Below, piece after piece: positions 50,705 to 62,046 of a DNA stretch of 64,000 nt. The notes under the pieces were generated by a model. The model searched no databases. It saw only the letters and a list, made by a program, of their open reading frames with translations, and was not told the origin of the DNA. The stretch's first letter is position 1. The number at the start of each line of letters is the position of its first letter. The translations under genes and the position numbers were made by a program. Source of the stretch: Flagellimonas flava (GTDB lineage Bacteria > Bacteroidota > Bacteroidia > Flavobacteriales > Flavobacteriaceae); assembly GCF_900129665.1 (NCBI RefSeq), contig NZ_FQWL01000005.1:1-64000 (forward strand). The letters run 5' to 3'.

Positions 50705-51100
50705 GGGGCCGACTGGTTTTGACAGCGAGACCATTGGCAATGTAAGCATGTCGAGCGCTGGGATACAGCTCGTTAATCTCATTTTCCACACTTTTAATTG
50801 GCGATAATAATTACGCTCTTGCCGCATAATCTGAATTATAGTAAGATTTGCCTCGTCCTTACTAGGTAGGGAAGCGAGATGTTCCTGGATAGCCCTTGTT
50901 GACGGCGATCCGTTTTGGAGCACCATAAAAGTCAACATAAGGGTACGGCTCGCTTTGGCAGTACCACTAAAATTTTAAGAAGCTAAGTGTACAATAGGCG
51001 GTCTTTGGTCGGTTGTGCATCTAAAATTGAACATAGACTAAGCATGTAGAAAGCATTGACTTTGCTTGTTTGGACGGGAGTTCGATTCTCCCCGGCTCCA
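50705..51100 (+). ncRNA. ssrA: Transfer-messenger RNA (tmRNA)
   Basis: The tmRNA rescues stalled ribosomes by tagging unfinished proteins. The 5' end GGGGCC pairs with the 3' GGCTCC, followed by the discriminator A; CCA is not encoded. The T arm reads GGGAGTTCGATTCTCCC. The tag frame at 50800-50829 codes GDNNYALAA and stop, the flavobacterial kind of tag. The start of the RNA resembles the tRNA-Ala-like D loop (GACTGGTTTTGACAG). It is followed by a 14-bp terminator stem. A tyrosine recombinase gene lies 237 bases beyond the 3' end, so this gene is likely an island attachment site. Confidence 0.95.
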
Positions 51101-51123
51101 CTTTTAGAACACCAAATTAGACT

Positions 51124-51337: not shown

Positions 51338-52579
51338 ATGGTAAGTACGTTTTCAACACTATTCTATATAAAAAATGAGCGTAGGGATAAGAACGGAAAA
51401 GCAGGCTTATACCTAAGGATTACGGTAGATGGGAGGCGAACATCAATAAGTTTGCACCGAAAAGTCGATCCGTCCAAATGGGACTCGCGGATGAATAAAT
51501 TAAAAGGGAAAGGTGTTGAAGCCGAAGAATTGAATCGCTTTATGACCACAATACGGCATAAGATAAATAGAATACAACATGAATTAATAGAAGGGGGAAA
51601 ACCATTTACGGCCCTTGATGTCAAAAACATTTATTTAGGCAAAGACAAAGAGGTTAAAATGCTTCTGGTTGTATTTGATGAACACAACCGCCAAATGAAA
51701 AAACTGGTAGATAAGGAATTTGCCATCGGTACCTGGAAGCGGTACTTCACCACCAGAAACCATATTGCGGAATTCATTCGCCATGAATACAAGAGGGAAG
51801 ACTTACCGTTCCAGGATGTAGACCTGAAGTTCATTACCCGATTTGAATACTTTATGAAATCGGTGAAAGATTGTAATCACAACAGCGCATTAAAATACAT
51901 CAACAACTTTAAAAAGATTGTCCGCCTGGCGGTTGCCAACGGGTGGATAGCCAGAGATCCTTTTTACAATTACAAGGTTAAGTTTAAATGGGTAGACCGT
52001 GAATTTCTCTCTACAGAAGAATTGCAACGCCTGGTAGATCTTGAAATTAACTGGCCACGAATTGATATGGTTAGGGATATGTTTGTCTTCTGTTGCTATA
52101 CAGGGCTAGCTTATATTGATGTGAAGAACTTGACTCAGGATAATTTGGTTAGAAATATTGATGGAGAGCTCTGGATAGAAGCCAAACGGACCAAAACTGA
52201 TGCTAAATTTAGCATTCCCCTACTGCCAAATGCCTTGGCCATCCTGGCGAAGCACAAACACCATCCCAAAGTGATGAACGGGGAATGTGTTCTTCCCATA
52301 TTGAGTAACCAAAAATCCAATGCTTATCTCAAAGAAATTGCTGATTTATGCGGTATCAAAAAGAACCTTACTACGCATCTTGCCAGACATACTTTTGCCA
52401 CTACTGTAACTCTTTCCAATGGTGTACCAATTGAAACTGTAGGAAAAATGTTAGGTCATAAAAATCTTAGAGCTACACAACATTATGCTAAGATCATAAA
52501 TAAGAAGGTGGGCGAGGATATGGCAATTTTAAAGGAAAAGTTGACTAGCGCCGAGGTAAACAAAAAAACTTCTAATTAG
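51338..52579 (+). CDS. Tyrosine recombinase / integrase of an ssrA-integrated element
   Basis: This 413-residue site-specific recombinase starts at the ATG at 51338. The arm-binding N-terminus reads FYIKNERRDKNGKAGLYLRITVDGRRTSISLHRKVDPSKWD. A SAM-like core-binding domain follows (NHIAEFIRHEYKREDLPFQDVDLKFITRFEYFM). The catalytic domain has HLARHTFAT (H-x-x-R), LGHKN and the nucleophile Tyr in TQHYAKI. The first Arg is replaced: CCYTGLAYIDVKNL has Ala where lambda-type enzymes have Arg. A missing first Arg is known from IntDOT-like Bacteroidota integrases. The position just downstream of the tmRNA 3' end suggests that the element uses ssrA as its target. Confidence 0.92.
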   Translation: MVSTFSTLFYIKNERRDKNGKAGLYLRITVDGRRTSISLHRKVDPSKWDSRMNKLKGKGVEAEELNRFMTTIRHKINRIQHELIEGGKPFTALDVKNIYLGKDKEVKMLLVVFDEHNRQMKKLVDKEFAIGTWKRYFTTRNHIAEFIRHEYKREDLPFQDVDLKFITRFEYFMKSVKDCNHNSALKYINNFKKIVRLAVANGWIARDPFYNYKVKFKWVDREFLSTEELQRLVDLEINWPRIDMVRDMFVFCCYTGLAYIDVKNLTQDNLVRNIDGELWIEAKRTKTDAKFSIPLLPNALAILAKHKHHPKVMNGECVLPILSNQKSNAYLKEIADLCGIKKNLTTHLARHTFATTVTLSNGVPIETVGKMLGHKNLRATQHYAKIINKKVGEDMAILKEKLTSAEVNKKTSN

Positions 52580-52678: not shown

Positions 52679-54451
52679 CTAAAGTTGAGAAATTCTCTCA
52701 ATTAAAAAGCTAAAGTTAGTACTCCTCATATCCCTCATACAATATAAAAGTGAAAGTTTAGCTATCCTTGAATTGGTTGCAATGATTTCTTCTTTAATTG
52801 CGACATCCGAAGCTGATGAGTAAGAAAAGACAAAAACGATAGTCTTTGTCTTGAACAAATCGATAAAATCGCTTTCTCCCACAGGGATACTCTTGTCATC
52901 TCTATTATATGTAATTTCATTATCCTCGTAATTCTTGGAAACAGTGCTATAGTACTTTTTTAGTAGGGCATTGTCACTTTCATTTATTGCAGATTTAAGT
53001 ATTCTTGCAGCATTAACAATTTGATTTGAAAGAACTCTCAAATCTCTACCAAGATCTTTTTTCACATGATACAGATATATTGAATCTTCTGAAATTCTAA
53101 TTAGATCACAAATTTCGATTTGATTCAGAAGTTTGGTATCCGTCACTATAAAATTGTCAACATTCTTATATTCATCGTTGTAGCCCCCTTCTTTTGGAAC
53201 TAGATTAAGGTCCCAAGCTTCTAGCTTGTAATCTGGCACTATTGCATCAAAGTCAAATTCTGAAAAATATGTGTTTAGATGGTCATCAAAACCATCTCTA
53301 TATCGATACCAATCATTATCGATTTTGAAAAACTTGTTCCCATCAAACTCCACTTCTCCCCCAATCCATTTATCCAAAGAAACTTCATTCAAATAAGCTC
53401 CATCTTCAGTAATTTTATAACCTCCATAACAATTTTGTAGACCTTCCAAGAAAGTAGCTTCCGTCGAGGAATCTATTTTGTCCTCTGCCACCAATTGGGA
53501 TATGATTGAAGTAAAGCCAATTGAATATGCATAGGATATTTCTAGATAATCTCCATCAACATTGAATCTAGCCTCAATTGACCTCATATATTCGAATACG
53601 TCCGGATGATAAAAATCTATTGATTCTCCTTCCATATAAGAATTATAGGCCATCTTGATTAATTCTTCATTTAGGTTATCTCTTATTGCTCCCAATTCAC
53701 TCATAGAAAGCCTGTAAAACTGATTAAATTGAACACCTTCAAGTTCAAGTAATTCTTCAATTTTTAAAACTCTTTGTAGTAATTCATTATAATCAAAATT
53801 AGTTGACATTTCAATCGAGGAACTTCCATTTACAGATACTTTCCGAATATCATCCCGTTTTTTAACTATACCCAGTTTTTCGAAATTTTCTTCTTTTATT
53901 GAAGCCAACATTTTTTTATAAATTTTGCCAAAATCATCCTCATAGCTTAGATTGTAATTTTCTCTGAAATATCTCTCAGCTCCAAGCACTTCTCCGAAAA
54001 CCCCTCTTTCTTCTATTTGTCTTATTTCTGTTTCACTCTTGTTAACCAACCTCGATAATACCTCAAGACCAAAGAAGCGATCCATTAACTCTTCTAAGAT
54101 ATATCTTCCGAAATATCCCTTTGTAATAGCGTAAATCCTATTCTCACTATATAAGAAGAGTATGAACGATGAGTACTTTGCTTCCAATTCACCCAAGTCA
54201 TTTTCATTTGCAACAATTTCTGAAAGAAAATCAACCCACTTTGGATTTTTTTCTTGTGTTCTATAGACATATAGTTTAGGTGTATAACCATTTGAAGTCA
54301 GATTGGCATTTAAGGTGACGGAAACAAACTGATTTCCACTCTTCTCCCTATATTCATCAATCATTTTAGCAACCAACTCTTCAGAACCGGCATAATTCTC
54401 GACAACTATGTCTTGAAGTTTATAAAGCTTGGCATTTACACGTCGTGACAT
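52679..54451 (-). CDS. DUF6119/TIGR04141 family sporadically distributed protein
   Basis: This 590-residue protein has the plan of the TIGR04141/DUF6119 family. The N-terminus is KLYKLQDIVVENY, followed by PKWVDFLSEIVANENDLGELEAKYSSFILFLYSENRIYAITKGYFGRYILEELMDRFFGLEVLSRLVNKSETEIRQIEERGVFG. The C-terminal half has the conserved NFIVTDTKLLNQIEICDLIRISEDSIYLYHVKKDLGRDLRVLSNQIVNAARILKS. The segment E-x-CDL ... YHVK resembles the core of PD-(D/E)xK-like folds, but the nuclease idea is my inference. It is the last gene of a five-gene leftward operon. The function is unknown; the family is typical of genomic islands. Confidence 0.82.
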   Translation of the reverse strand: MSRRVNAKLYKLQDIVVENYAGSEELVAKMIDEYREKSGNQFVSVTLNANLTSNGYTPKLYVYRTQEKNPKWVDFLSEIVANENDLGELEAKYSSFILFLYSENRIYAITKGYFGRYILEELMDRFFGLEVLSRLVNKSETEIRQIEERGVFGEVLGAERYFRENYNLSYEDDFGKIYKKMLASIKEENFEKLGIVKKRDDIRKVSVNGSSSIEMSTNFDYNELLQRVLKIEELLELEGVQFNQFYRLSMSELGAIRDNLNEELIKMAYNSYMEGESIDFYHPDVFEYMRSIEARFNVDGDYLEISYAYSIGFTSIISQLVAEDKIDSSTEATFLEGLQNCYGGYKITEDGAYLNEVSLDKWIGGEVEFDGNKFFKIDNDWYRYRDGFDDHLNTYFSEFDFDAIVPDYKLEAWDLNLVPKEGGYNDEYKNVDNFIVTDTKLLNQIEICDLIRISEDSIYLYHVKKDLGRDLRVLSNQIVNAARILKSAINESDNALLKKYYSTVSKNYEDNEITYNRDDKSIPVGESDFIDLFKTKTIVFVFSYSSASDVAIKEEIIATNSRIAKLSLLYCMRDMRSTNFSFLIERISQL

Positions 54452-54475
54452 ATGATAAAGATTTGTTGTTTTAAT

Positions 54476-54916
54476 TCAGTATGGTAATGCATTGACTACC
54501 TCCAACCGAATTGAGCTTACCTCTTTATAGTTTTTAATGCTCAACTTAAAAGGCATTGTTCTATTAGGAGGAAAAATTTCATAAATGGTGTATTCTTTGT
54601 TTCCAATAACAGAGTTTGTTTTGGAATAATAGGTAACTTTTAAAACAACATCCTTATAACTGGCTACAGTAGCCTTATTAGAAATCTTTCCATTTATTTT
54701 CAGTTCAGTACCCCAAAAGCTTTCTTTATACTTTCCATTAGCAGTTAAAAATTGAACAGGATTTGCACTCTCAATCTCCTCAATGGACATCTTTTGCTCA
54801 TGATAGGTTTTTGAATTATCACTGTTGTCCGCTTTTATCACTTTTGAAATTATAATAATAGCTCCTAATACAGCCCCTGCATAAAGTAAATATTTAATGT
54901 ATTCAGCGCTTTTCAT
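54476..54916 (-). CDS. Single-pass membrane protein of unknown function
   Basis: This 146-residue protein has one N-terminal membrane segment (YIKYLLYAGAVLGAIIIISKVI) and an extracytoplasmic domain. The domain reads NPVQFLTANGKYKESFWGTELKINGKISNKATVASYKDVVLKVTYYSKTNSVIGNKEYTIYEIFPPNRTMPFKLSIKNYKEVSSIRLEV. It looks like a small Ig/FxLYD-type beta-sandwich, the kind of domain that carries I-x-G-x-x-x-N and P-x-x-x-x-F-K motifs. It lies 24 bases upstream of the DUF6119 gene and 12 bases downstream of the coiled-coil gene. Confidence 0.72.
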   Translation of the reverse strand: MKSAEYIKYLLYAGAVLGAIIIISKVIKADNSDNSKTYHEQKMSIEEIESANPVQFLTANGKYKESFWGTELKINGKISNKATVASYKDVVLKVTYYSKTNSVIGNKEYTIYEIFPPNRTMPFKLSIKNYKEVSSIRLEVVNALPY

Positions 54917-54928
54917 ATTGTATAATGA

Positions 54929-55189
54929 TTATGGACACGACCAACATTCATTGCCAAAAGCTTTATTAGCAGCTTCTTGAGCATATTCAGAAGCTTCCCT
55001 TGCATAGTCTGCAGCATCACTTGCATAAGAAGCCGCATCCTCAGCATTATTTTTTGCCATTCTGGCCTCATACTCTGCATTACTTACAGATTTCATTATC
55101 CTATTGAGTTTAATTTGAAGTTGAATATTATATGCCAACACCATAATAAAAACAACAACAATCAAAGTTTTGTTGGAAATTTTATTCAT
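54929..55189 (-). CDS. Small membrane-anchored alanine-rich coiled-coil protein
   Basis: This 86-residue protein has one membrane segment (LIVVVFIMVLAYNIQLQI) followed by a charged helix with seven-residue periodicity. SNAEYEARMAKNNAEDAASYASDAADYAREASEYAQEAANKA resembles bacterial Lpp-like or phage coiled-coil helices. It ends NECWSCP with two Cys. No family is recognised. It is the middle gene of the operon ending in the DUF6119 gene. Confidence 0.68.
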   Translation of the reverse strand: MNKISNKTLIVVVFIMVLAYNIQLQIKLNRIMKSVSNAEYEARMAKNNAEDAASYASDAADYAREASEYAQEAANKAFGNECWSCP

Positions 55190-55216
55190 TTATTTCAGAT
55201 TGAATTTTCTTGTGTT

Positions 55217-55561
55217 CTAATCTTCCCATCCACAAAGCGTTCTTCCTCTTCTCTTGGCCTCCTCAAGACTCACTTTAGAAATTGATGATCTACAATTTGA
55301 AAGACCTCTACAGTTTTTTTTATAATGATAGCGTTTGCTTGATTTACCATTGCATACATAAACTTCAGGGCTCTCACCCGTAAGAAGATGAATGGTGTCT
55401 AAGTTTTGCGGACCTTCCGGTTCAAACTTTGGGATATTCTGATAAGTGTTTTCATTGTGAAACCTATCTTCATAACCAACGCTCTTACTTTCCCTTCCCA
55501 ATAAAAAGGAAATCAGCAGAGCAAGAAATACACTTATATATTCAAAGTGTTTTTTCTTCAT
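55217..55561 (-). CDS. Membrane-anchored protein with a Cys/His (Ada-like) motif
   Basis: This 114-residue protein has one N-terminal membrane segment (YISVFLALLISFLLG). Its C-terminal domain is VYVCNGKSSKRYHYKKNCRGLSNCRSSISKVSLEEAKRRGRTLCGWED. The order VY-C ... YH ... C-x-x-L ... C ... VSLEEAKRRGRTLC matches a small Cys/His motif seen in many phage and nuclease-associated proteins, which may bind zinc or hold disulfides. It overlaps the upstream lipoprotein gene by four bases, so translation is coupled. Confidence 0.72.
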   Translation of the reverse strand: MKKKHFEYISVFLALLISFLLGRESKSVGYEDRFHNENTYQNIPKFEPEGPQNLDTIHLLTGESPEVYVCNGKSSKRYHYKKNCRGLSNCRSSISKVSLEEAKRRGRTLCGWED

Positions 55562-56208
55562 TCGAGAGAGGTTCCGTCTTCAAATAATATCTTTTCAGGT
55601 GTCCAAGCAATTTTCAAATCCTCTATGTCCTTATTTCTCAATCTAACATCTTCATCTCTAAACTGATTATAATCAGTTGTATACGTACCTCTGTATACGG
55701 TTCCCGAAGGAATTGTTTCATCAATTGTTAAATTGATAGAAGTAATTTTCGTGTCAAACAAATCATTGATGGTCAACACTCCTTTAAATGCTCTTATATC
55801 TTTCTGAGATTTGTTTTCAAAAGCCAAGCTATAAGTCAGATAATCTTGGTAATCATATTCAGTATAACCCTTATCATAAAGAGCAACTGTCAATGTGGAC
55901 CCCATTTTTATTCGCTTCTGCTCTTCTTCAAGCTTTGTCTTTTTTGCAAGATTCTCTTGTTGTTTTTCGTAGTCATTAGCTTCCTCTAGAATTTCGCTAT
56001 AAGTTTTTCCTTCCAAGGATTCTCCGGTCAATTCGGCTTTAGCAATCCAACCCGCCATTGTTTGAAGTTCTTCATCAGACAATCCTGCCTTTTCTCTAAT
56101 TTCTTTCGCATCTGCGGAAAGTGATATCTTACTATATTTTTTGTCTAGAGGCGAGGAACAAGATTGTAGTATGAACAAGCAAATAATTATGAGAGTAAGT
56201 CTTTTCAT
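55558..56208 (-). CDS. Lipoprotein, first gene of the island operon
   Basis: This 216-residue lipoprotein has the signal MKRLTLIIICLFILQSC with Cys17. An alpha-helical part follows (KEIREKAGLSDEELQTMAGWIAKAELTGESLEGKTYSEILEEANDYEKQQENLAKKTKLEEEQKR). The C-terminal half is a beta domain: LTYSLAFENKSQKDIRAFKGVLTINDLFDTKITSINLTIDETIPSGTVYRGTY. This is an FxLYD-like sandwich, similar in type to the membrane protein two genes later. It has its own -7 promoter element at 56234-56241. Confidence 0.75.
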   Translation of the reverse strand: MKRLTLIIICLFILQSCSSPLDKKYSKISLSADAKEIREKAGLSDEELQTMAGWIAKAELTGESLEGKTYSEILEEANDYEKQQENLAKKTKLEEEQKRIKMGSTLTVALYDKGYTEYDYQDYLTYSLAFENKSQKDIRAFKGVLTINDLFDTKITSINLTIDETIPSGTVYRGTYTTDYNQFRDEDVRLRNKDIEDLKIAWTPEKILFEDGTSLE

Positions 56209-56233: not shown

Positions 56234-56241
56234 CAAACTTA
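56234..56241 (-). promoter_or_regulatory. -7 element of the five-gene island operon
   Basis: The minus strand reads TAAGTTTG, an exact TAnnTTTG, 25 bases before the ATG at 56208. It lies between the terminator of the upstream operon and the lipoprotein gene, so the operon 56208-52679 is a separate transcription unit. Confidence 0.55.
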
Positions 56242-56251
56242 TTCCCTCTGC

Positions 56252-56281
56252 AAAAAAGAACCTTACGGGTTTCCGTAAGGT
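56252..56281 (-). terminator. Intrinsic terminator after the Cas2-like operon
   Basis: On the minus strand ACCTTACGG (56273-56281) and CCGTAAGGT (56260-56268) form a 9-bp stem with a 4-base loop, then CTTTTTTG. It is placed after the stop of the gene at 56310. Confidence 0.85.
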
Positions 56282-56309
56282 CTTTAAATTTTTGGATGAA
56301 GTTTAACCC

Positions 56310-56672
56310 TCAGTAACAATTACATACGTAGTCTATAATATACTTATGAAATCTTTTCCCATAAGAATTTGGATCTCCATAACCTCCATATCGAAAATTG
56401 CTCCAGTTTTGAGAAGGAATACCACAAAAGATGTATGTGTTTGTGCTAAAACTATACTCATTCCTTTTTATTTCAGCCACAACATAAATACTGTAATTAT
56501 ATTCGTAGGCAGTTACCTTGTACAACCAGGACGAATTAAGGGTGTAGCTGCTCAAAGAACCTTTCCCATATCCCCCCGATTCAACAAATTCCAACAATCT
56601 GTTGCAGCTTATCTGTTGGGAAAAGCTGTTTCCAGAGCACATTAAAGCCAAGAGCAAAACAAACTTTTTCAT
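56310..56672 (-). CDS. Exported protein with KTSC-like domain
   Basis: This 120-residue protein has a signal peptide (MKKFVLLLALMCSGNSFSQ). The end reads NTYIFCGIPSQNWSNFRYGGYGDPNSYGKRFHKYIIDYVCNCY, which resembles the KTSC pattern (Y-x-x-x-G-V-P ... F ... S-x-G-K-x-F-x-x-x-I-x-x-x-Y). It also has several Cys. The function is unknown. It overlaps the upstream gene by four bases and is the last gene of its operon. Confidence 0.65.
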   Translation of the reverse strand: MKKFVLLLALMCSGNSFSQQISCNRLLEFVESGGYGKGSLSSYTLNSSWLYKVTAYEYNYSIYVVAEIKRNEYSFSTNTYIFCGIPSQNWSNFRYGGYGDPNSYGKRFHKYIIDYVCNCY

Positions 56673-57205
56673 TTTAGCTCATCCATCTTAGTTTTTGCCA
56701 AATCAAAGGCTACATCTATACTGGCTACATCTTTCATAAAAACAGTATTACCATCTCCGTACTTTTCTAGAATTAGATACCAACTAGTTTTACCCTTACT
56801 CACAAAATAACCAACTTGAAATCCGTCATCTGTCACAAATTTATTCTCAATATAATCTGCGTATGTAGAAGTGTCGTTTGTACTCTGAGATTTCAGATTT
56901 TCTAGTGCCTTTTGCATCTCTAGTAAATCTTCATAAGCAACCGAGGCCGTCTTAGTATCATATTTGCCCTCTTTGGAAATTTGGTAGAACAATTTTGTTT
57001 CTGTTCCACTGGTCAATTTCCTTATTCTTGCTTGGGCAATTCCATAGTTCAACTTGATACTAGGCAATCGATAATCCTCATATTTGATCAAAACCCCAGT
57101 TTTCGATACAAAGTCCAACATTTTAGACTGTTGTTCTTTTAGGTCTTGACTAAAAACTGTACCAACACTTAATAAAGCAATTAACAGACTAATAGTTTTA
57201 TTCAT
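56669..57205 (-). CDS. Exported protein of unknown function
   Basis: I start it at the ATG at 57205 (178 residues), giving the signal peptide MNKTISLLIALLSVGTVFSQ. The upstream Met at 57211 would overlap the preceding stop. The mature part reads LKEQQSKMLDFVSKTGVLIKYEDYRLPSIKLNYGIAQARIRKL, then SVAYEDLLEMQKALENLKSQ, FVTDDGFQVGYFVSKGKTSWYLILEKYGDGNTVFMKD and FDLAKTKMDEL. It looks like an alpha/beta protein of no known family. Its start is two bases after the small basic gene. Confidence 0.7.
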   Translation of the reverse strand: MNKTISLLIALLSVGTVFSQDLKEQQSKMLDFVSKTGVLIKYEDYRLPSIKLNYGIAQARIRKLTSGTETKLFYQISKEGKYDTKTASVAYEDLLEMQKALENLKSQSTNDTSTYADYIENKFVTDDGFQVGYFVSKGKTSWYLILEKYGDGNTVFMKDVASIDVAFDLAKTKMDELK

Positions 57206-57207
57206 TA

Positions 57208-57348
57208 TCATTTCTTTTTCTTTTTAGGTGCTCTCTGTGAAAGAGCACTACCTGCAGCTCTCTTGCTGTCTTTGCTAGTTCTTTTATCCCTCAAAACTTT
57301 GGATGCGGAAGAAGCTGCTTTTTTACTCGTCTTTCTTTGTTTTGCCAT
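57208..57348 (-). CDS. Small Lys/Ser/Ala-rich basic protein
   Basis: I start it at the ATG at 57348 (46 residues). The protein is strongly basic: QRKTSKKAASSASKVLRD, KRTSKDSKRAAGSALSQR and a run of five Lys at the end. The two halves look like a repeat (KTSKKAASSASKVL and TSKDSKRAAGSALS). Similar short proteins with S-A-S-K-x-L ... A-G-S-A-L-S-Q occur in many bacteria and phages as I remember them. Nucleic-acid binding is plausible but inferred. It sits directly between the Cas2-like gene and the exported-protein gene. Confidence 0.7.
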   Translation of the reverse strand: MAKQRKTSKKAASSASKVLRDKRTSKDSKRAAGSALSQRAPKKKKK

Positions 57349-57370
57349 TGGATATATTTTGAAATTAAAG

Positions 57371-57622
57371 TTATGGTAGGTTGTTTGGGGTATTATTGGA
57401 ATTATATGTCGCCCAACCCACTGACTCATCGATTAATAGTCCGTCATCCTTGTCGATAAATCCCTTAAAATAGTCCCTCAGAGCAGCTATGGAAGTATTA
57501 ACCCTTTTAAAACACCAGGTTGATTCTAAAACTTGAATTGCTCCGAAAGATTTTAGCTCATCATACAATTTTTGATAATCCCTATTATTACGTAAATCGT
57601 AACTTAAAAAGTAAAGTGCCAT
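57371..57622 (-). CDS. Solitary Cas2/SinR-like ferredoxin-fold protein
   Basis: I start it at the ATG at 57622 (83 residues). The sequence ALYFLSYDLRNNRDYQKLYDELKSFGAIQVLESTWCFKR, followed by LRDYFKGFIDKDDGLLIDESVGWATYN, follows the Cas2/VapD-like fold. It has a first strand ending in YDL-x-N, a Y-x-x-L-x-x-x-L helix, a W-containing strand, and the D-D-x-LL-I strand. No cas1, CRISPR repeats or VapD partner are present, so it is not CRISPR machinery. Nuclease or toxin roles are possible but not shown. Confidence 0.72.
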   Translation of the reverse strand: MALYFLSYDLRNNRDYQKLYDELKSFGAIQVLESTWCFKRVNTSIAALRDYFKGFIDKDDGLLIDESVGWATYNSNNTPNNLP

Positions 57623-57715
57623 ATACACTGTTTTTATTTATTATGGGAAAATAAAAACTTGAAGAACCACTTCATTACGGGATTCCTCATCAATAGAAAA
57701 TAAATTTTTTGGAAA

Positions 57716-58381
57716 CTAAATAAGCCCCAAATCCTTTACAATTGCCACTAAGTGTATGGCATTTTTAGCCCCGAACTGTATGCGAAGTTTATTCAGGTGT
57801 TTTTCGATAGAACTTAAACTGGAGGGGGAGATATTTTTCTTCTTGAACAACGAACTGATTTCATCTTGTGAAAGACCTTTGGCTAAGTGTTCCATCAGTT
57901 CAATGTCGAATTCATTAATTCCTAAATCCAACTTTGAGCTCAGTGCGTTTTTCACTTCTTCAGAGAGATAACGTTCATTATTATATATAGATGTGATTGC
58001 ATTGGATAGTCCTTTAAGACCGTTTCTCCCTTTACAAACGTAACCCTCAATCCCATAGTCATTTACCAAAGTTCTAACTCTTTGAAGCCTGTCCTCAACG
58101 GAATATACTATGACTTTTAAATTGGGATACTCGCTTTTTACTTTTTCAATTAAAGCTTCTCCTGAAGGGTAATTTTGTTCCCGATGGTCTACTTTAAAAG
58201 ACAAATCTGTGACCAATAATTCATAAGGCCCATCATCTAAATAGCTTCTCTTTATTTTTAAATAGGCATCGTCACAATACTGTGTTTGATGAACTTCAGG
58301 AATATCCAATTTGGAAAGAATCGTGTAAACCCCTTGGTTTACATCATCCATATCTTCCGCTACCAATACCTTTCTAAACAT
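57716..58381 (-). CDS. Response regulator, NarL/FixJ-like with LuxR-type output domain
   Basis: This 221-residue regulator has a receiver domain: KVLVAEDMDDVNQGV, the phosphoacceptor Asp in ELLVTDLSFKVDH, VIVYSVEDRLQRVR, and Lys in GYVCKGRNGLKGL. The C-terminal helix-turn-helix is LMEHLAKGLSQDEISSLFKKKNISPSSLSSIEKHLNKLRIQFGAKNAIHLVAI. It lies three bases after the histidine kinase gene, its partner. A set of AAGAAGTA-type repeats at 60340-60388 is a candidate binding site. Confidence 0.93.
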   Translation of the reverse strand: MFRKVLVAEDMDDVNQGVYTILSKLDIPEVHQTQYCDDAYLKIKRSYLDDGPYELLVTDLSFKVDHREQNYPSGEALIEKVKSEYPNLKVIVYSVEDRLQRVRTLVNDYGIEGYVCKGRNGLKGLSNAITSIYNNERYLSEEVKNALSSKLDLGINEFDIELMEHLAKGLSQDEISSLFKKKNISPSSLSSIEKHLNKLRIQFGAKNAIHLVAIVKDLGLI

Positions 58382-58384
58382 ATT

Positions 58385-60049
58385 CTAAACAATAATATGA
58401 ACTTCAAATCCATTATTTCTTTGTGAATCAAAAGTAATGGTTCCCTTTAGAGAGGTAATACGGTTTTCCGCATTCTGCAACCCGAGTTTCTTTTTCAGGT
58501 CGCATCCAATCCCATTGTCTTTATAATCAATGGACACTTTAGCTCCTGATTTATTAAACGTTAATGCGACCAATGAGGCCTTGCTATGCTTTTTCATATT
58601 GGTCAATAGTTCTTGCAAGACCCTGTAAATTGCCATTCTCTTCAAATCTGAAACCCGACTCCAATCTATTTTTACAATATTTCTAGTAACAATATTTACC
58701 TTTTGATTTTTAAAGCTTAGAAGCAGGTCATTTAGCAGAAGATCAAAATCTTCATTAAAGTCAATAGGACTATTTTCCCTCGAAATATCCCTTGTCTTAG
58801 AATAAATATTTTCCAAATCATCCATGACATCAGACTTAACATCCGGGTTGTTTTCCAGTTTGGTCATTACTTGATAAATATCGTTTGCCACCTCATCGTG
58901 TACTTTTTTGGAAATTCTAGTCTCGGTATTATATGCCTGCTCCAATCTTCCTTTTTTGTACCGGTATCGAAAAATAAAATAGGAAGCCAATAACGCTAAA
59001 AGTATTAAAGCCGCTATAGCTTTATATAAAAGTTTTAAACGCTTCTCCTTCTCCTGCTGCAATCTGCTTGCTTCTGTTTTCTTTCGCTCTTCCTCAACAT
59101 TATACTTTATGTATGCATTTTTATTTTCAGCCAATTGTCTTGCTTCAACAATACTATCGGTCAATCTCTTGTATTGTTTCACTTTGGGGTCTTCATCCAA
59201 TTCAACAAATAGTGATAACGCATCTTGCACATACCCACCATTCTCCAGTTTTCTGGCAATCGCATAAGCTTGGTCTGCATAAAGCATGGCATTCTTTTTG
59301 TCATTTTTGTCAAGAAAGAAATGGGTTAGATTTTTATAGCTTCTGTAAATTCCAGCAAGTTCATTTTCCTTTATCCTAACCTTTAAAGCTTTGTTTAGAT
59401 TGTCCAGTGCTGATGGCAGATTTAGCTTAGCTTGTACATATCCAAGATTATCCAAAACCATAGCCAGTTGTAAACTGTCACTACCACTCGAAGTCTTGTC
59501 ATAGACTAGAACATATTGATTTAGTGCTTGCTGATATTGAAGCATGTCCTTATGCACATTAGCCTTATTGTTGAGTATTGTGATACTATCTTTTGTATTC
59601 GAGGCCATTTTGAGAGCTTCTTCAAAAGACTTGAGAGCTTCTTCATAATTATTGGCAGACCGATAAACCCTCCCCAGTTGATTTAGTAATCCTACTCGTG
59701 ATTCAACCAAATTATCTCTATTCTTATTTTTGTTGATCAAATCAAGTGCTTCTACAATTGAGCTTTCACTGTCGTATACATTTCCTATTTTGAACTGACC
59801 AATGGCAATCATTCTCAAATCTCCAATAGCTCTTAAGGTATCTCCATTGATTAAATTTCTTTCTTTTCGTTTAGAATAATAGCTGATTCCGTCAGGCAAA
59901 TGCTCAGGTTGTTTTGGGTTTAGGATAGCATAGTAGTAATAGCTTACACTATCTGATTTATCCTGTGCTGTACATTTACCAGAAATCATTGTTATCAAAA
60001 ATGACAGCAATAAATAAAAAAAGAGGAATGAAATGTTTTGGTACTTCAT
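58385..60049 (-). CDS. TPR-containing sensor histidine kinase
   Basis: This 554-residue kinase has a signal segment (YQNISFLFFYLLLSFLITMISG). A periplasmic region of tetratricopeptide repeats follows (VGLLNQLGRVYRSANNYEEALKSFEEAL, DNLGYVQAKLNLPSALDNLNKAL). A membrane segment (LLYKAIAALILLALLASYFIFRY) comes next, then a HisKA_3 dimer domain with the phospho-His in ISKKVHDEVANDIYQVM. The HATPase domain has LTNMKKHSKASLV and YKDNGIGCDLKKKLGLQNAENRI. The first codons contain a terminator hairpin. It follows the lipopeptide gene and precedes the response regulator. Confidence 0.93.
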   Translation of the reverse strand: MKYQNISFLFFYLLLSFLITMISGKCTAQDKSDSVSYYYYAILNPKQPEHLPDGISYYSKRKERNLINGDTLRAIGDLRMIAIGQFKIGNVYDSESSIVEALDLINKNKNRDNLVESRVGLLNQLGRVYRSANNYEEALKSFEEALKMASNTKDSITILNNKANVHKDMLQYQQALNQYVLVYDKTSSGSDSLQLAMVLDNLGYVQAKLNLPSALDNLNKALKVRIKENELAGIYRSYKNLTHFFLDKNDKKNAMLYADQAYAIARKLENGGYVQDALSLFVELDEDPKVKQYKRLTDSIVEARQLAENKNAYIKYNVEEERKKTEASRLQQEKEKRLKLLYKAIAALILLALLASYFIFRYRYKKGRLEQAYNTETRISKKVHDEVANDIYQVMTKLENNPDVKSDVMDDLENIYSKTRDISRENSPIDFNEDFDLLLNDLLLSFKNQKVNIVTRNIVKIDWSRVSDLKRMAIYRVLQELLTNMKKHSKASLVALTFNKSGAKVSIDYKDNGIGCDLKKKLGLQNAENRITSLKGTITFDSQRNNGFEVHIIV

Positions 60050-60075: not shown

Positions 60076-60237
60076 TTAGTTGTCCCCGCCAGGAGGTGGA
60101 GGTGGGGGAATATCTCCGCCATCACCGCCACAACAGGCTTCTATATAAATTTCCTCGTCTGCAATACTTTCCGGCGTACAGGAAAACAGCATAAAATTGA
60201 GGAAAACCGTAAACAAAATTAAATATGTTTTTGTCAT
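60076..60237 (-). CDS. Short Cys/Gly/Pro lipopeptide gene leading the kinase operon
   Basis: I start it at the ATG at 60237 (53 residues). The signal KTYLILFTVFLNFMLFSC gives a lipobox LFSC with Cys20. The mature peptide is only about 34 residues: TPESIADEEIYIEACCGGDGGDIPPPPPPGGDN, with an acidic part, CC, Gly/Asp and six Pro. No known family is seen. It lies 27 bases upstream of the kinase, separated by the terminator-like hairpin, so it is probably made in excess of the kinase. It may be a ligand or regulator of the TPR sensor, which is inference. Confidence 0.65.
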   Translation of the reverse strand: MTKTYLILFTVFLNFMLFSCTPESIADEEIYIEACCGGDGGDIPPPPPPGGDN

Positions 60238-60339
60238 TTTACTTGCTTTGAAAATGGACATACCAATGGCTGTCCGAGTTATTATTCAGTGAATTCTGCG
60301 ATGAGAAATCGCATAGAAATATGAGAGGCGTCCCTCTCG

Positions 60340-60388: not shown

Positions 60389-60602
60389 TACCTACAGCAA
60401 TGGACTTAATCCCTCTGATTTAGAATTGAAACTCGCAAGCCTTATACGAGAAGACATTTTCAAATTCTGAAGCAAATGAAATGATGAAATCTTGGAAACC
60501 CAGGAATTATTATGGAAGAGATTTGGAAAGTTTTCTGAGCAAAAATTCCACAGACATTCCAAAAGATTTCCTATTTTAAACTATCTAAAAATCAACCTTT
60601 TA

Positions 60603-61304
60603 ATGCACAAAACACTAATCATTCATGCTTTTAAAAAGGCAGAGGAGGAAAGAAAAAAAAGAGGAGAAAAAAAGCCCTCAAAAGTTGACCTAGCAGGCGA
60701 TATTTCAAATTTTATCAAAGATGAAATGGAATTCGGATTGGGTGAGAAAAGTTATCGTGATTATTTCAATGAAGCAAAAAAGTTGGGGAACAACCTGAAG
60801 GATATAAGTATTAAACAACTAAAGGTTGTTGTAGGTCTTTGTAGATTTCTTGGTTACAAAACTTATGAAGAGTTTGAGGAGAGTATAAAAAGTGAAAGCA
60901 TCCTTCAAAAATTGCTAGTCTTTTTAAAAAAGTATAAAATCTTAATCATACTTTTTATTATTACCACAGCTATTTTTATGGTAATAGTTTCGGTAAATCG
61001 ACAGCGATGGATGATATGGAATGGTAGTCATTACATTGAAACAAAATTTGATGCAGAAAAATTACAACAAGGTCTATTAAAGGTGTATAAAGAAGATCGG
61101 ATCAAGTATTTTGAAAAAATCGCTCCAGATTGCAATACAGAGTTTTTCACAGAAGAGGGTTTGGAAAATCTATGGTATGGAAAAAATTCATTAGGTGAAC
61201 TGGAATATTTCACTGACTTGGCAAGACATCCAGAAACAGGTAAATCCCTTAATCCAATAACTAGTTATATGATCAAAAAATACATTTGTGAAAAATATCC
61301 GTAA
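60603..61304 (+). CDS. Single-pass membrane protein with cytosolic regulator-like domain
   Basis: I start it at the ATG at 60603 (233 residues), because the conserved-looking part begins there. Residues 1-95 are cytosolic: HAFKKAEEERKKRGEKKPSKVDLAGDISNFIKDEMEFGLGEKSYRDYFNEAKKL, then LKVVVGLCRFLGYKTYEEFEES. This resembles a small flavobacterial domain often found before a membrane segment. The helix KILIILFIITTAIFMVIVSV follows, and a ~100-residue outer domain with WMIWNGSHYIETKFDAEK. It is divergent from the two-component operon and shares its intergenic region. Confidence 0.75.
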   Translation: MHKTLIIHAFKKAEEERKKRGEKKPSKVDLAGDISNFIKDEMEFGLGEKSYRDYFNEAKKLGNNLKDISIKQLKVVVGLCRFLGYKTYEEFEESIKSESILQKLLVFLKKYKILIILFIITTAIFMVIVSVNRQRWMIWNGSHYIETKFDAEKLQQGLLKVYKEDRIKYFEKIAPDCNTEFFTEEGLENLWYGKNSLGELEYFTDLARHPETGKSLNPITSYMIKKYICEKYP

Positions 61305-61660: not shown

Positions 61661-61683
61661 GTAACATCGCGTTAGCGTGTTAC
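61661..61683. repeat. Hairpin GTAACA..CGC/GCG.TGTTAC
   Basis: GTAACA (61661-61666) pairs with TGTTAC (61678-61683) and CGC with GCG around a GTTA loop, with one bulged base. Confidence 0.6.
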
Positions 61684-61691
61684 CCTCTTGC

Positions 61692-61731
61692 TTTACATTC
61701 CACGTCCTGCTGGCAGGACAAAAAATGTAAA
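61692..61731. repeat. Composite hairpin with two stems
   Basis: The outer arms TTTACATT (61692-61699) and AATGTAAA (61724-61731) are perfect. The inner arms GTCCTGC (61704-61710) and GCAGGAC (61713-61719) are perfect too, separated by symmetric 4-base internal loops. Confidence 0.7.
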
Positions 61732-62046
61732 CACTATGCGCTTTGGGCATCTATTAAATGACCACAAAAGCCGTCAAATTTTATGTAGAATTAAGGTTAG
61801 TATTTCCGTATATTATTTAATGAAAAATGAATTCAATTCATAGGAAAGTCTATTACGCACAATATTTTATTGTAGTTTCTTTGATTTTTTGATTTAGGTG
61901 AGCTATTCGGTGAGTATAAAAAACGAAAGTATTGTAAAGCCGGTAATCACCTGTACTCCAGAATTAGGTTCTGGTCTTTATACGTCTGAATTACATTGTA
62001 TGGAAACCGCAAAATATAATACCTAACGCAAAAAAATCATTTAAGC

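What the first reader, a model, noticed from the sequence alone, without database searches (positions are those of the whole stretch)
52679..56208. Five-gene island operon ending in a DUF6119/TIGR04141 protein, with four envelope proteins
The genes 56208 (lipoprotein), 55561 (membrane anchor with Cys/His motif), 55189 (membrane anchor with coiled coil), 54916 (membrane anchor with beta-sandwich) and 54451 (590-residue DUF6119-like protein) are read in one direction. The gaps are a four-base overlap, 27, 12 and 24 bases, behind one -7 promoter element. The first four are all exported or membrane-anchored, while the last looks cytosolic with a possible PD-(D/E)xK-like core (CDL ... YHVK). An envelope sensor plus intracellular effector, for example in phage defence, is my inference. 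I know of no described system with this composition.
Basis: partly seen in the sequence, partly recalled or inferred. Interest (0 to 1): 0.72.

Follow-up and report, generated by a model that had tools for sequence, protein, structure and literature searches.

The report
Nuclease-like gene among mobile-island cargo
The five genes are real and lie in a row, but they do not look like one conserved machine: a probable DNA-cutting protein of an unstudied family sits beside small envelope genes that are found apart from it in other bacteria, next to a membrane signalling module that is common in this bacterial family and may control them.

Summary
Observation confirmed: five co-directional ORFs (gaps -4, 27, 12, 24 bases) behind a strong terminator-like hairpin (z -5.2); the last is a true DUF6119/TIGR04141 protein. 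The five-gene system is not supported: of 34 distinct DUF6119 loci none carries the lipoprotein, coiled-coil or sandwich gene; one has a weak Cys/His hit. In 22 of 33 loci DUF6119 has no co-directional gene within 60 nt.

DUF6119's C-terminal part models well (pLDDT 90) and weakly resembles PD-(D/E)xK nucleases (best Z 6.0-6.8). E421, C448-D449, H462-x-K464 and Q477 are invariant in 34 of 34, with His where Asp/Glu is canonical. Restriction and abortive-infection genes recur next to it elsewhere. Most likely it is a solo defence nuclease carried as cargo.

Outside the given coordinates the block is headed by a divergent membrane protein, a small polyproline lipoprotein, a TPR histidine kinase and a response regulator. 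The kinase occurs in 65 of 169 Flavobacteriaceae genomes; the genes after it vary. Loci picked by the Cys/His gene contain it in 11 of 19 cases; 18 random regions and 39 DUF6119 fetches contain no full-length copy. So the Cys/His gene, and less surely the lipoprotein, belong to that module's accessory pool; DUF6119 is an add-on.

The parts
52679..54451 (-). DUF6119/TIGR04141 protein, 590 aa; predicted PD-(D/E)xK-like nuclease core in residues ~410-590 (window 52679-53224)
54476..54916 (-). membrane-anchored 146 aa protein with C-terminal domain (sandwich inferred); homologues in other contexts
54929..55189 (-). membrane-anchored 86 aa alanine-rich coiled-coil protein
   Evidence: (PF11839 30 bits, cut-off 23.1); low complexity, searched only in loci already held
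55217..55561 (-). membrane-anchored 114 aa protein with ~50 aa Cys/His domain; accessory gene of the kinase module elsewhere
55558..56208 (-). 216 aa lipoprotein; homologues follow the kinase module in 2 of 40 kinase loci
56234..56241 (-). TAAGTTTG, candidate -7 element
   Evidence: not above chance over the window
56259..56282 (-). terminator-like hairpin separating the five genes from the genes upstream
56310..56672 (-). 120 aa protein with N-terminal hydrophobic stretch (exported by reading), upstream cargo
56669..57211 (-). 180 aa protein with N-terminal hydrophobic stretch (exported by reading), upstream cargo
   Evidence: homologues in two kinase loci
57208..57348 (-). 46 aa basic protein
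   Evidence: 78-85% identity in two kinase loci
57371..57628 (-). Cas2-like 85 aa protein (21.9 bits, below Pfam cut-off 23.8)
   Evidence: homologue in one kinase locus
57716..58381 (-). response regulator, 221 aa (Response_reg E 2.6e-5, below Pfam cut-off)
58385..60049 (-). histidine kinase: TPR repeats, hydrophobic segment near residue 341, HATPase (just over cut-off)
60076..60261 (-). 61 aa lipoprotein with CCG..polyproline-GG tail
60492..61304 (+). divergent 270 aa protein with one strong TM segment
51338..52579 (+). tyrosine recombinase (integrase)
50705..51103 (+). tmRNA gene ssrA, likely attachment site

Best explanation
The five genes are the distal cargo of an island beside ssrA, probably one transcript of their own (inferred from spacing and the hairpin). 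They are not a dedicated system. The Cys/His gene, and less surely the lipoprotein gene, come from the accessory genes that follow a conserved Flavobacteriaceae signalling module (divergent membrane protein, polyproline lipoprotein, TPR kinase, response regulator), whose copy lies just upstream in the same direction. DUF6119 is an independently distributed gene. Its C-terminal half most likely folds as a PD-(D/E)xK-like nuclease using E421, D449, H462, K464 and Q477 (sequence invariance shown; fold predicted; catalysis inferred). Its N-terminal half probably recognises nucleic acid or an infection cue (inferred). It most likely defends the cell by cutting DNA during infection (inferred); control of the cargo by the kinase is possible but untested.
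For: None of 39 DUF6119 fetches (34 distinct places; five fetched twice) holds a homologue of lipoprotein, coiled-coil or sandwich gene; only L066 has a weak Cys/His hit (E 4e-7). In 22 of 33 loci DUF6119 has no co-directional gene within 60 nt on either side. Homologues of lipoprotein, sandwich and Cys/His genes lie elsewhere without DUF6119 in the loci examined. Cys/His-picked loci hold kinase and regulator in 11 of 19, divergent protein in 14, lipopeptide in 8; the 11 kinase matches run over 493-560 residues with E about 2e-48 or better, while 18 random regions give one 53-residue ATPase match at E 5e-4 (none) and 39 DUF6119 fetches give no kinase and one weak regulator. 40 kinase loci: regulator 39, divergent protein 24, lipopeptide 20, Cys/His 3, lipoprotein 2, DUF6119 0. 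Nuclease: motif in 34 of 34 and in three canonical members; C-terminal model pLDDT 90.4; VIA top rows N.BspD6I Z 6.0 (rmsd 3.2, 118 residues) and R.BspD6I small subunit Z 6.0 (rmsd 3.0, 109 residues) (6.8 and 6.5 in the whole-protein model). Defence: 120 DUF6119 neighbours match 394 PADLOC models, 120 random genes 23; Eco57I 4, putAbiC 4, MmeI methylase 3 of 120, none of these among the 25 of 181 families shown for the random set.
Against: All Z are below 8 and Foldseek gives no E under 0.001; SfsA, CD38 and Rag GTPase rows stand close to the restriction enzymes in the VIA lists. The third catalytic position is His, not Asp/Glu. PADLOC counts are models, not proteins, and methylase models overlap. 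Family-profile matches to KwaB or SduA are absent and profile-profile comparison gave nothing. The window protein is only 20-25% identical to every relative aligned, so closer relatives with the same operon may exist unsampled. The random control is smaller (216 kb against 328 kb) and was drawn at one coordinate per genome. An integrase-like gene was found by two query integrases in only 4 of 39 DUF6119 fetches, 1 of 40 kinase loci and 0 of 19 Cys/His loci, so mobility of the kinase module outside this window is not shown.
Confidence: 0.6

Rival explanations
1. A dedicated five-gene envelope-sensor plus nuclease defence system; rare and recently assembled.
For: Tight spacing, one direction, hairpin and -7 element ahead, first four products exported or membrane-anchored.
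Against: Gene set not found again: 0 of 34 distinct DUF6119 loci, and none of the 3 lipoprotein, 6 sandwich or 19 Cys/His loci examined carries DUF6119.
Confidence: 0.08
2. The kinase module and the genes down to DUF6119 form one regulated programme: lipopeptide and TPR kinase sense envelope damage (for example phage adsorption) and the regulator switches on the cargo, DUF6119 included.
For: Same strand from 60261 to 52679; Cys/His gene linked to the kinase in 11 of 19 loci against no full-length copy in 18 random regions; 135 downstream genes in 23 of 40 kinase loci match 246 PADLOC models, among them type I methylases, E1-E2, an oligonucleotide cyclase and NucC, against 23 models for 120 random genes.
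Against: A strong terminator-like hairpin lies between the two halves; 17 of 40 kinase loci have no co-directional cargo of 60 aa or more; DUF6119 in 0 of 40; the PADLOC models matched most often there include SNase-type and kinase-type ones, which are not specific to defence; regulator binding sites unknown.
Confidence: 0.27
3. DUF6119 is not a nuclease: the His-x-Lys variant is inactive or does other chemistry, and the protein binds nucleic acid or acts as an RNA-directed toxin.
For: His in place of Asp/Glu in 34 of 34; N-terminal half gives weak rows with RnlA, CENP-N and lambda RexA (RexA Z 4.2 at rmsd 12.5).
Against: Strict invariance of the whole candidate site suggests catalysis; nucleases lead the list for the C-terminal domain.
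Confidence: 0.22

Closest known systems
DUF6119 / TIGR04141 (PF19614)
   Same: Passes both curated cut-offs; shares the ExCD...HxK...Q core with canonical members
   Different: Longer (590 against ~520 aa) subfamily, 20-25% identical to the relatives aligned; no function found in the library searched
N.BspD6I / R.BspD6I, FokI catalytic domains
   Same: Best structural rows for residues 410-590 (Z 6.0-6.8)
   Different: Z below 8; Glu/Asp-x-Lys replaced by His-x-Lys; no type IIS recognition domain identified
Shedu SduA (PF14082)
   Same: Solo defence gene with C-terminal PD-(D/E)xK domain (recalled); an SduA chain appears at Z 5.0
   Different: No family match and no profile-profile match (hhalign probability 0.2%)
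Kiwa KwaA-KwaB
   Same: General idea of membrane protein plus cytosolic nucleic-acid effector (recalled)
   Different: No family match and no profile-profile match with KwaB (probability 0.1%)
NarX/DesK-like two-component systems
   Same: Sensor region, HATPase, response regulator (subclass recalled)
   Different: TPR sensor, CC-polyproline lipopeptide and divergent membrane protein as frequent neighbours

Membership tests
DUF6119/TIGR04141 | profile score above curated cut-off | tested here: met
   140.5 vs 27; 98.9 vs 35
PD-(D/E)xK nuclease superfamily | alpha-beta-beta-beta-alpha-beta core fold | tested here: inconclusive
   Model order fits; nuclease chains lead VIA list at Z 6.0-6.8, below 8; Foldseek no E under 0.001
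PD-(D/E)xK nuclease superfamily | D ... (D/E)xK catalytic motif | tested here: not met
   D449 and K464 present, but His462 stands at the D/E position in 34 of 34; so filed as works-like, not member
Five-gene conserved system | genes stay together in other genomes | tested here: not met
   0 of 34 distinct DUF6119 loci
PADLOC 2.0.0 systems | match to a component model | tested here: not met
   no match listed up to E 1 for any of the five proteins
Kiwa | last gene matches the KwaB family (PF16162) | tested here: not met
   no PF16162 match up to E 1; hhalign probability 0.1%. Remote kinship is not excluded
Shedu | SduA C-terminal domain (PF14082) | tested here: not met
   no PF14082 match up to E 1; hhalign probability 0.2%. 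Remote kinship is not excluded
ssrA-integrated island | integrase next to ssrA | tested here: met
   ssrA plus integrase region also aligns at 79% in same-genus L026, with other genes after it
ssrA-integrated island | direct repeat at the far end | tested here: inconclusive
   none in window; 15-base copy 66.7 kb away, no tRNA there
Anti-phage defence | protection against phage | not testable with these tools
   needs bench work

The most novel reading that the evidence does not exclude
Flavobacteriaceae carry an undescribed envelope-sensing module (divergent membrane protein, CC-polyproline lipopeptide, TPR histidine kinase, response regulator) that sits ahead of interchangeable cargo, including defence genes; in this genome it switches on an operon whose effector is DUF6119, a nuclease class with a His-x-Lys site. 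Bacterial defence would here be induced by an outer-envelope signal rather than always on.
Probability: 0.22. Interest if true: 0.78.

Novelty: new variant of a known kind. Interest (0 to 1): 0.5.

Why it matters
DUF6119/TIGR04141 is widespread (7 of 299 Flavobacteriaceae genomes; 9 of 296 drawn from the phylum, 8 of them over the cut-off; both with the window's own genome; 24 plasmid records for a canonical member) yet without a function in the library searched; an invariant E/D/H-x-K/Q site makes its nuclease role directly testable. The signalling module found beside it has its kinase in 65 of 169 genomes of the family, with a conserved small lipoprotein as candidate ligand, and would offer a test of whether variable island genes are under envelope control.

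Tried and rejected
Rejected: single five-gene system; close kinship with KwaB or SduA. The RexA and RnlA rows for the N-terminal half are weak and I build nothing on them; one passage of PMC11077077 (found by term) names RdgC as RexA's structural relative; I read nothing else of that paper beyond its listing.

Led nowhere: A1 in viral contigs, no relative; lipoprotein and sandwich in viral contigs, none; window DUF6119 by tblastn in plasmids and phages, none; a canonical member (second DUF6119 gene of L048) found 24 plasmid records and one phage record, whose neighbourhoods I did not read. Phrogs: no match for DUF6119. Solved structures by sequence: none. Fold search in the viral library: no E under 0.001. 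DNA similarity at 61668 to two relatives looked at first like the island's right end but reads as a dispersed repeat. The coiled-coil gene was searched only in loci already held.

Literature: searches for DUF6119 (one unrelated paper), TIGR04141, RexA+DUF4868, KwaB+DUF4868+structure, TPR kinase+Flavobacteriaceae+genomic island, 'sporadically distributed protein'+defense, DUF5932, and TPR+histidine kinase+Flavobacterium+small lipoprotein+response regulator gave nothing relevant; open-access papers only, so absence is weak. (RexA, Kiwa) were seen as listings only.

Selection and rows dropped: of 26 non-own genomes with a Cys/His hit I fetched 19 of the 20 strongest, leaving out G057 and six weaker ones; 6 of the 19 are cut short by contig ends or by my range (in the 13 full ones kinase 8, divergent protein 11). 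Of 72 non-own kinase places listed I fetched 40 of the strongest 49; of the nine left out, five were already held as Cys/His loci that contain the kinase, so 3 of 40 for Cys/His is a low estimate. Of 8 non-own sandwich genomes I read 6. For neighbours, 129 genes were reduced to 125 and 120 drawn at random; controls 120 of 168 from 18 regions of 12 kb. In the 40 kinase loci cargo means co-directional genes after the first one, gaps under 400 nt. A7 dropped L145 (wrong frame). A2 holds two shortened members (L067, L069). Near-identical DUF6119 loci (such as L078/L079, L055/L059, L052/L053) were not merged. The lipopeptide pattern itself asks for a proline- or glycine-rich tail. My note 3 gave counts too high (12/12/9/15 for the Cys/His loci); searches give 11/11/8/14. 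The ssrA regions of 13 same-genus genomes hold kinase and regulator in 2.
Full report
Observation. The five minus-strand ORFs are as described, with a 4-base overlap and gaps of 27, 12 and 24 bases. Lipoprotein 55558-56208 has a lipobox; the next three have an N-terminal hydrophobic segment; the 590-residue protein has none. The last protein passes the curated cut-offs of DUF6119 and TIGR04141. The -7 element is present but such sites are no commoner than chance (66 against 70). A hairpin with a T tract at 56259-56282 (z -5.2) makes a transcript boundary ahead of the five genes likely.

Setting. A tyrosine recombinase (51338-52579) lies directly after ssrA (50705-51103). The same ssrA-integrase stretch aligns at 79% in a same-genus genome (L026) that has other genes after it. 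The ssrA tail has no second copy in the window; one 15-base copy lies 66.7 kb to the right in the same contig, without a tRNA, a possible far end of a large island that also holds SusCD-like and sulfatase-like genes (by reading). The search of the window's own genome gave one DUF6119 gene.

Does the set stay together? DUF6119 occurs in 7 of 299 Flavobacteriaceae genomes and 9 of 296 genomes drawn from the phylum (8 over the cut-off), own genome included in both. I collected 33 loci from named genomes and six from the genome search, five of which are the same places, so 34 distinct. None has a homologue of lipoprotein, coiled-coil or sandwich gene; L066 has a weak Cys/His hit. In 8 of 33 loci a co-directional gene lies within 60 nt upstream, in 8 downstream, in 11 on at least one side. 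Conversely the lipoprotein is in 4 of 71 genomes of the genus (one weak), the sandwich gene in 9 of 299, the Cys/His domain in 27 of 249, own included in each; no DUF6119 was found near those I examined (3, 6 and 19 loci).

What DUF6119 is. Alignment of 34 proteins leaves E366, E421, N425, D438, E446, C448, D449, H462, K464, R472, Q477, S561, A564, K565 and a few others invariant. The core ExCD...HxK...Q is also in three canonical members. The whole model has pLDDT 75; the C-terminal domain alone 90, with E421 at the start of a helix, D449 just before one strand, H462 and K464 at the end of the next and Q477 in the following helix. Foldseek found no solved structure with E under 0.001. The second-look aligner ranks BspD6I subunits first (Z 6.0 each for the domain; 6.8 and 6.5, with FokI 6.4, for the whole protein). 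Lower rows over the two lists hold many other restriction or defence nucleases (McrBC, BstEII, OkrAI, BsmI, PfoI, SduA, a Hachiman chain, Avs3 and Avs4), mixed with SfsA and with unrelated CD38 and Rag GTPases. I read this as a probable PD-(D/E)xK-like fold with His in place of Asp/Glu; activity is inferred.

Where DUF6119 lives. 120 genes next to it match 394 PADLOC models at E 1e-8, against 23 models for 120 genes from 18 random regions. The tool counts models, not genes, and methylases inflate the number. By Pfam, Eco57I methylase appears in 4, putAbiC in 4, MmeI methylase in 3, integrase in 2 and resolvase in 2 of the 120; the families shown for the control are largely metabolic or transport ones. 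Three putAbiC genes are the next gene downstream of DUF6119 (L055, L059, L071); two of these are close relatives.

The module next door. The Cys/His gene led to an unexpected linkage. Nineteen loci chosen only by that gene hold homologues of the window's kinase (58385-60049) and regulator (57716-58381) in 11, of the divergent membrane protein (60492-61304) in 14, and of the 61-residue lipoprotein (60076-60261) in 8. The 11 kinase matches cover 493-560 residues at E about 2e-48 or better; 18 random regions of 12 kb give one 53-residue ATPase match at E 5e-4 when searched alone and none in the joint search, and 39 DUF6119 fetches (631 kb) give no kinase and one weak regulator. The kinase is in 65 of 169 Flavobacteriaceae genomes at E 1e-40, own included. 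In 40 kinase loci the regulator follows in 39, the divergent protein is found in 24 (23 of them upstream and divergent) and the lipopeptide in 20. A pattern search finds a small ORF upstream in 22 of 40, of which 20 show a Cys-Cys pair followed by a proline-rich tail. Downstream genes vary: a TerB / ~420 aa / ~300 aa lipoprotein-like cassette in 5 of 40, with a staphylococcal-nuclease-like gene in 3 of these 5; the window's lipoprotein in 2; Cys/His in 3; the basic 46-mer in 2; DUF6119 in none. 17 of 40 have no co-directional cargo of 60 aa or more. The 135 cargo genes of the other 23 match 246 PADLOC models, including type I methylases, E1-E2, an oligonucleotide cyclase and NucC, but the most frequent is an SNase-type model. 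Two query integrases found a relative in only 1 of 40 kinase loci and 0 of 19 Cys/His loci, so I do not claim that the module is mobile elsewhere.

Reading. The window holds a mosaic: a conserved signalling head, accessory exported proteins of the kind that follow that head, and DUF6119 as a separately acquired gene at the end. A model consistent with this is that a lipoprotein tail is read by the TPR region of the kinase outside the membrane and that the regulator tunes island genes; every step of that model except gene linkage is inference.

Verdict. Observation right, grouping wrong, nuclease guess probably right. The more durable results are the invariant DUF6119 site and the linkage of the Cys/His gene, and more weakly the lipoprotein gene, to the kinase module.

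Noticed in passing
window 60076-60261 and L210-L249 upstream of the kinase: Small lipoprotein-like ORFs with a Cys-Cys pair and a polyproline tail, just upstream of a TPR histidine kinase in 20 of 40 loci.
   Followed up: partly
L214, L223, L234, L240, L241: Recurring cassette after the response regulator: TerB-like, ~420 aa, ~300 aa lipoprotein-like; an SNase gene with it in 3 of these 5.
   Followed up: partly
L048:7938-11384: Two different DUF6119 genes in tandem.
   Followed up: no
L055, L059, L071: putAbiC gene as the next gene downstream of DUF6119.
   Followed up: no
window 57208-57628: Cas2-like 85 aa gene followed by a basic 46 aa protein; the basic protein is 78-85% identical in two kinase loci of other genera.
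   Followed up: no
window contig C6:117802-117817 (outside the window): Copy of the ssrA tail 66.7 kb right of ssrA, possibly the far end of a large island with sulfatase-like and SusCD-like genes.
   Followed up: partly
L029, L034: ssrA-side regions of 2 of 13 same-genus genomes carry distant homologues of the kinase and regulator with other cargo.
   Followed up: no
window 61668-61741: Probable dispersed intergenic repeat, shared with G330 and G322.
   Followed up: no
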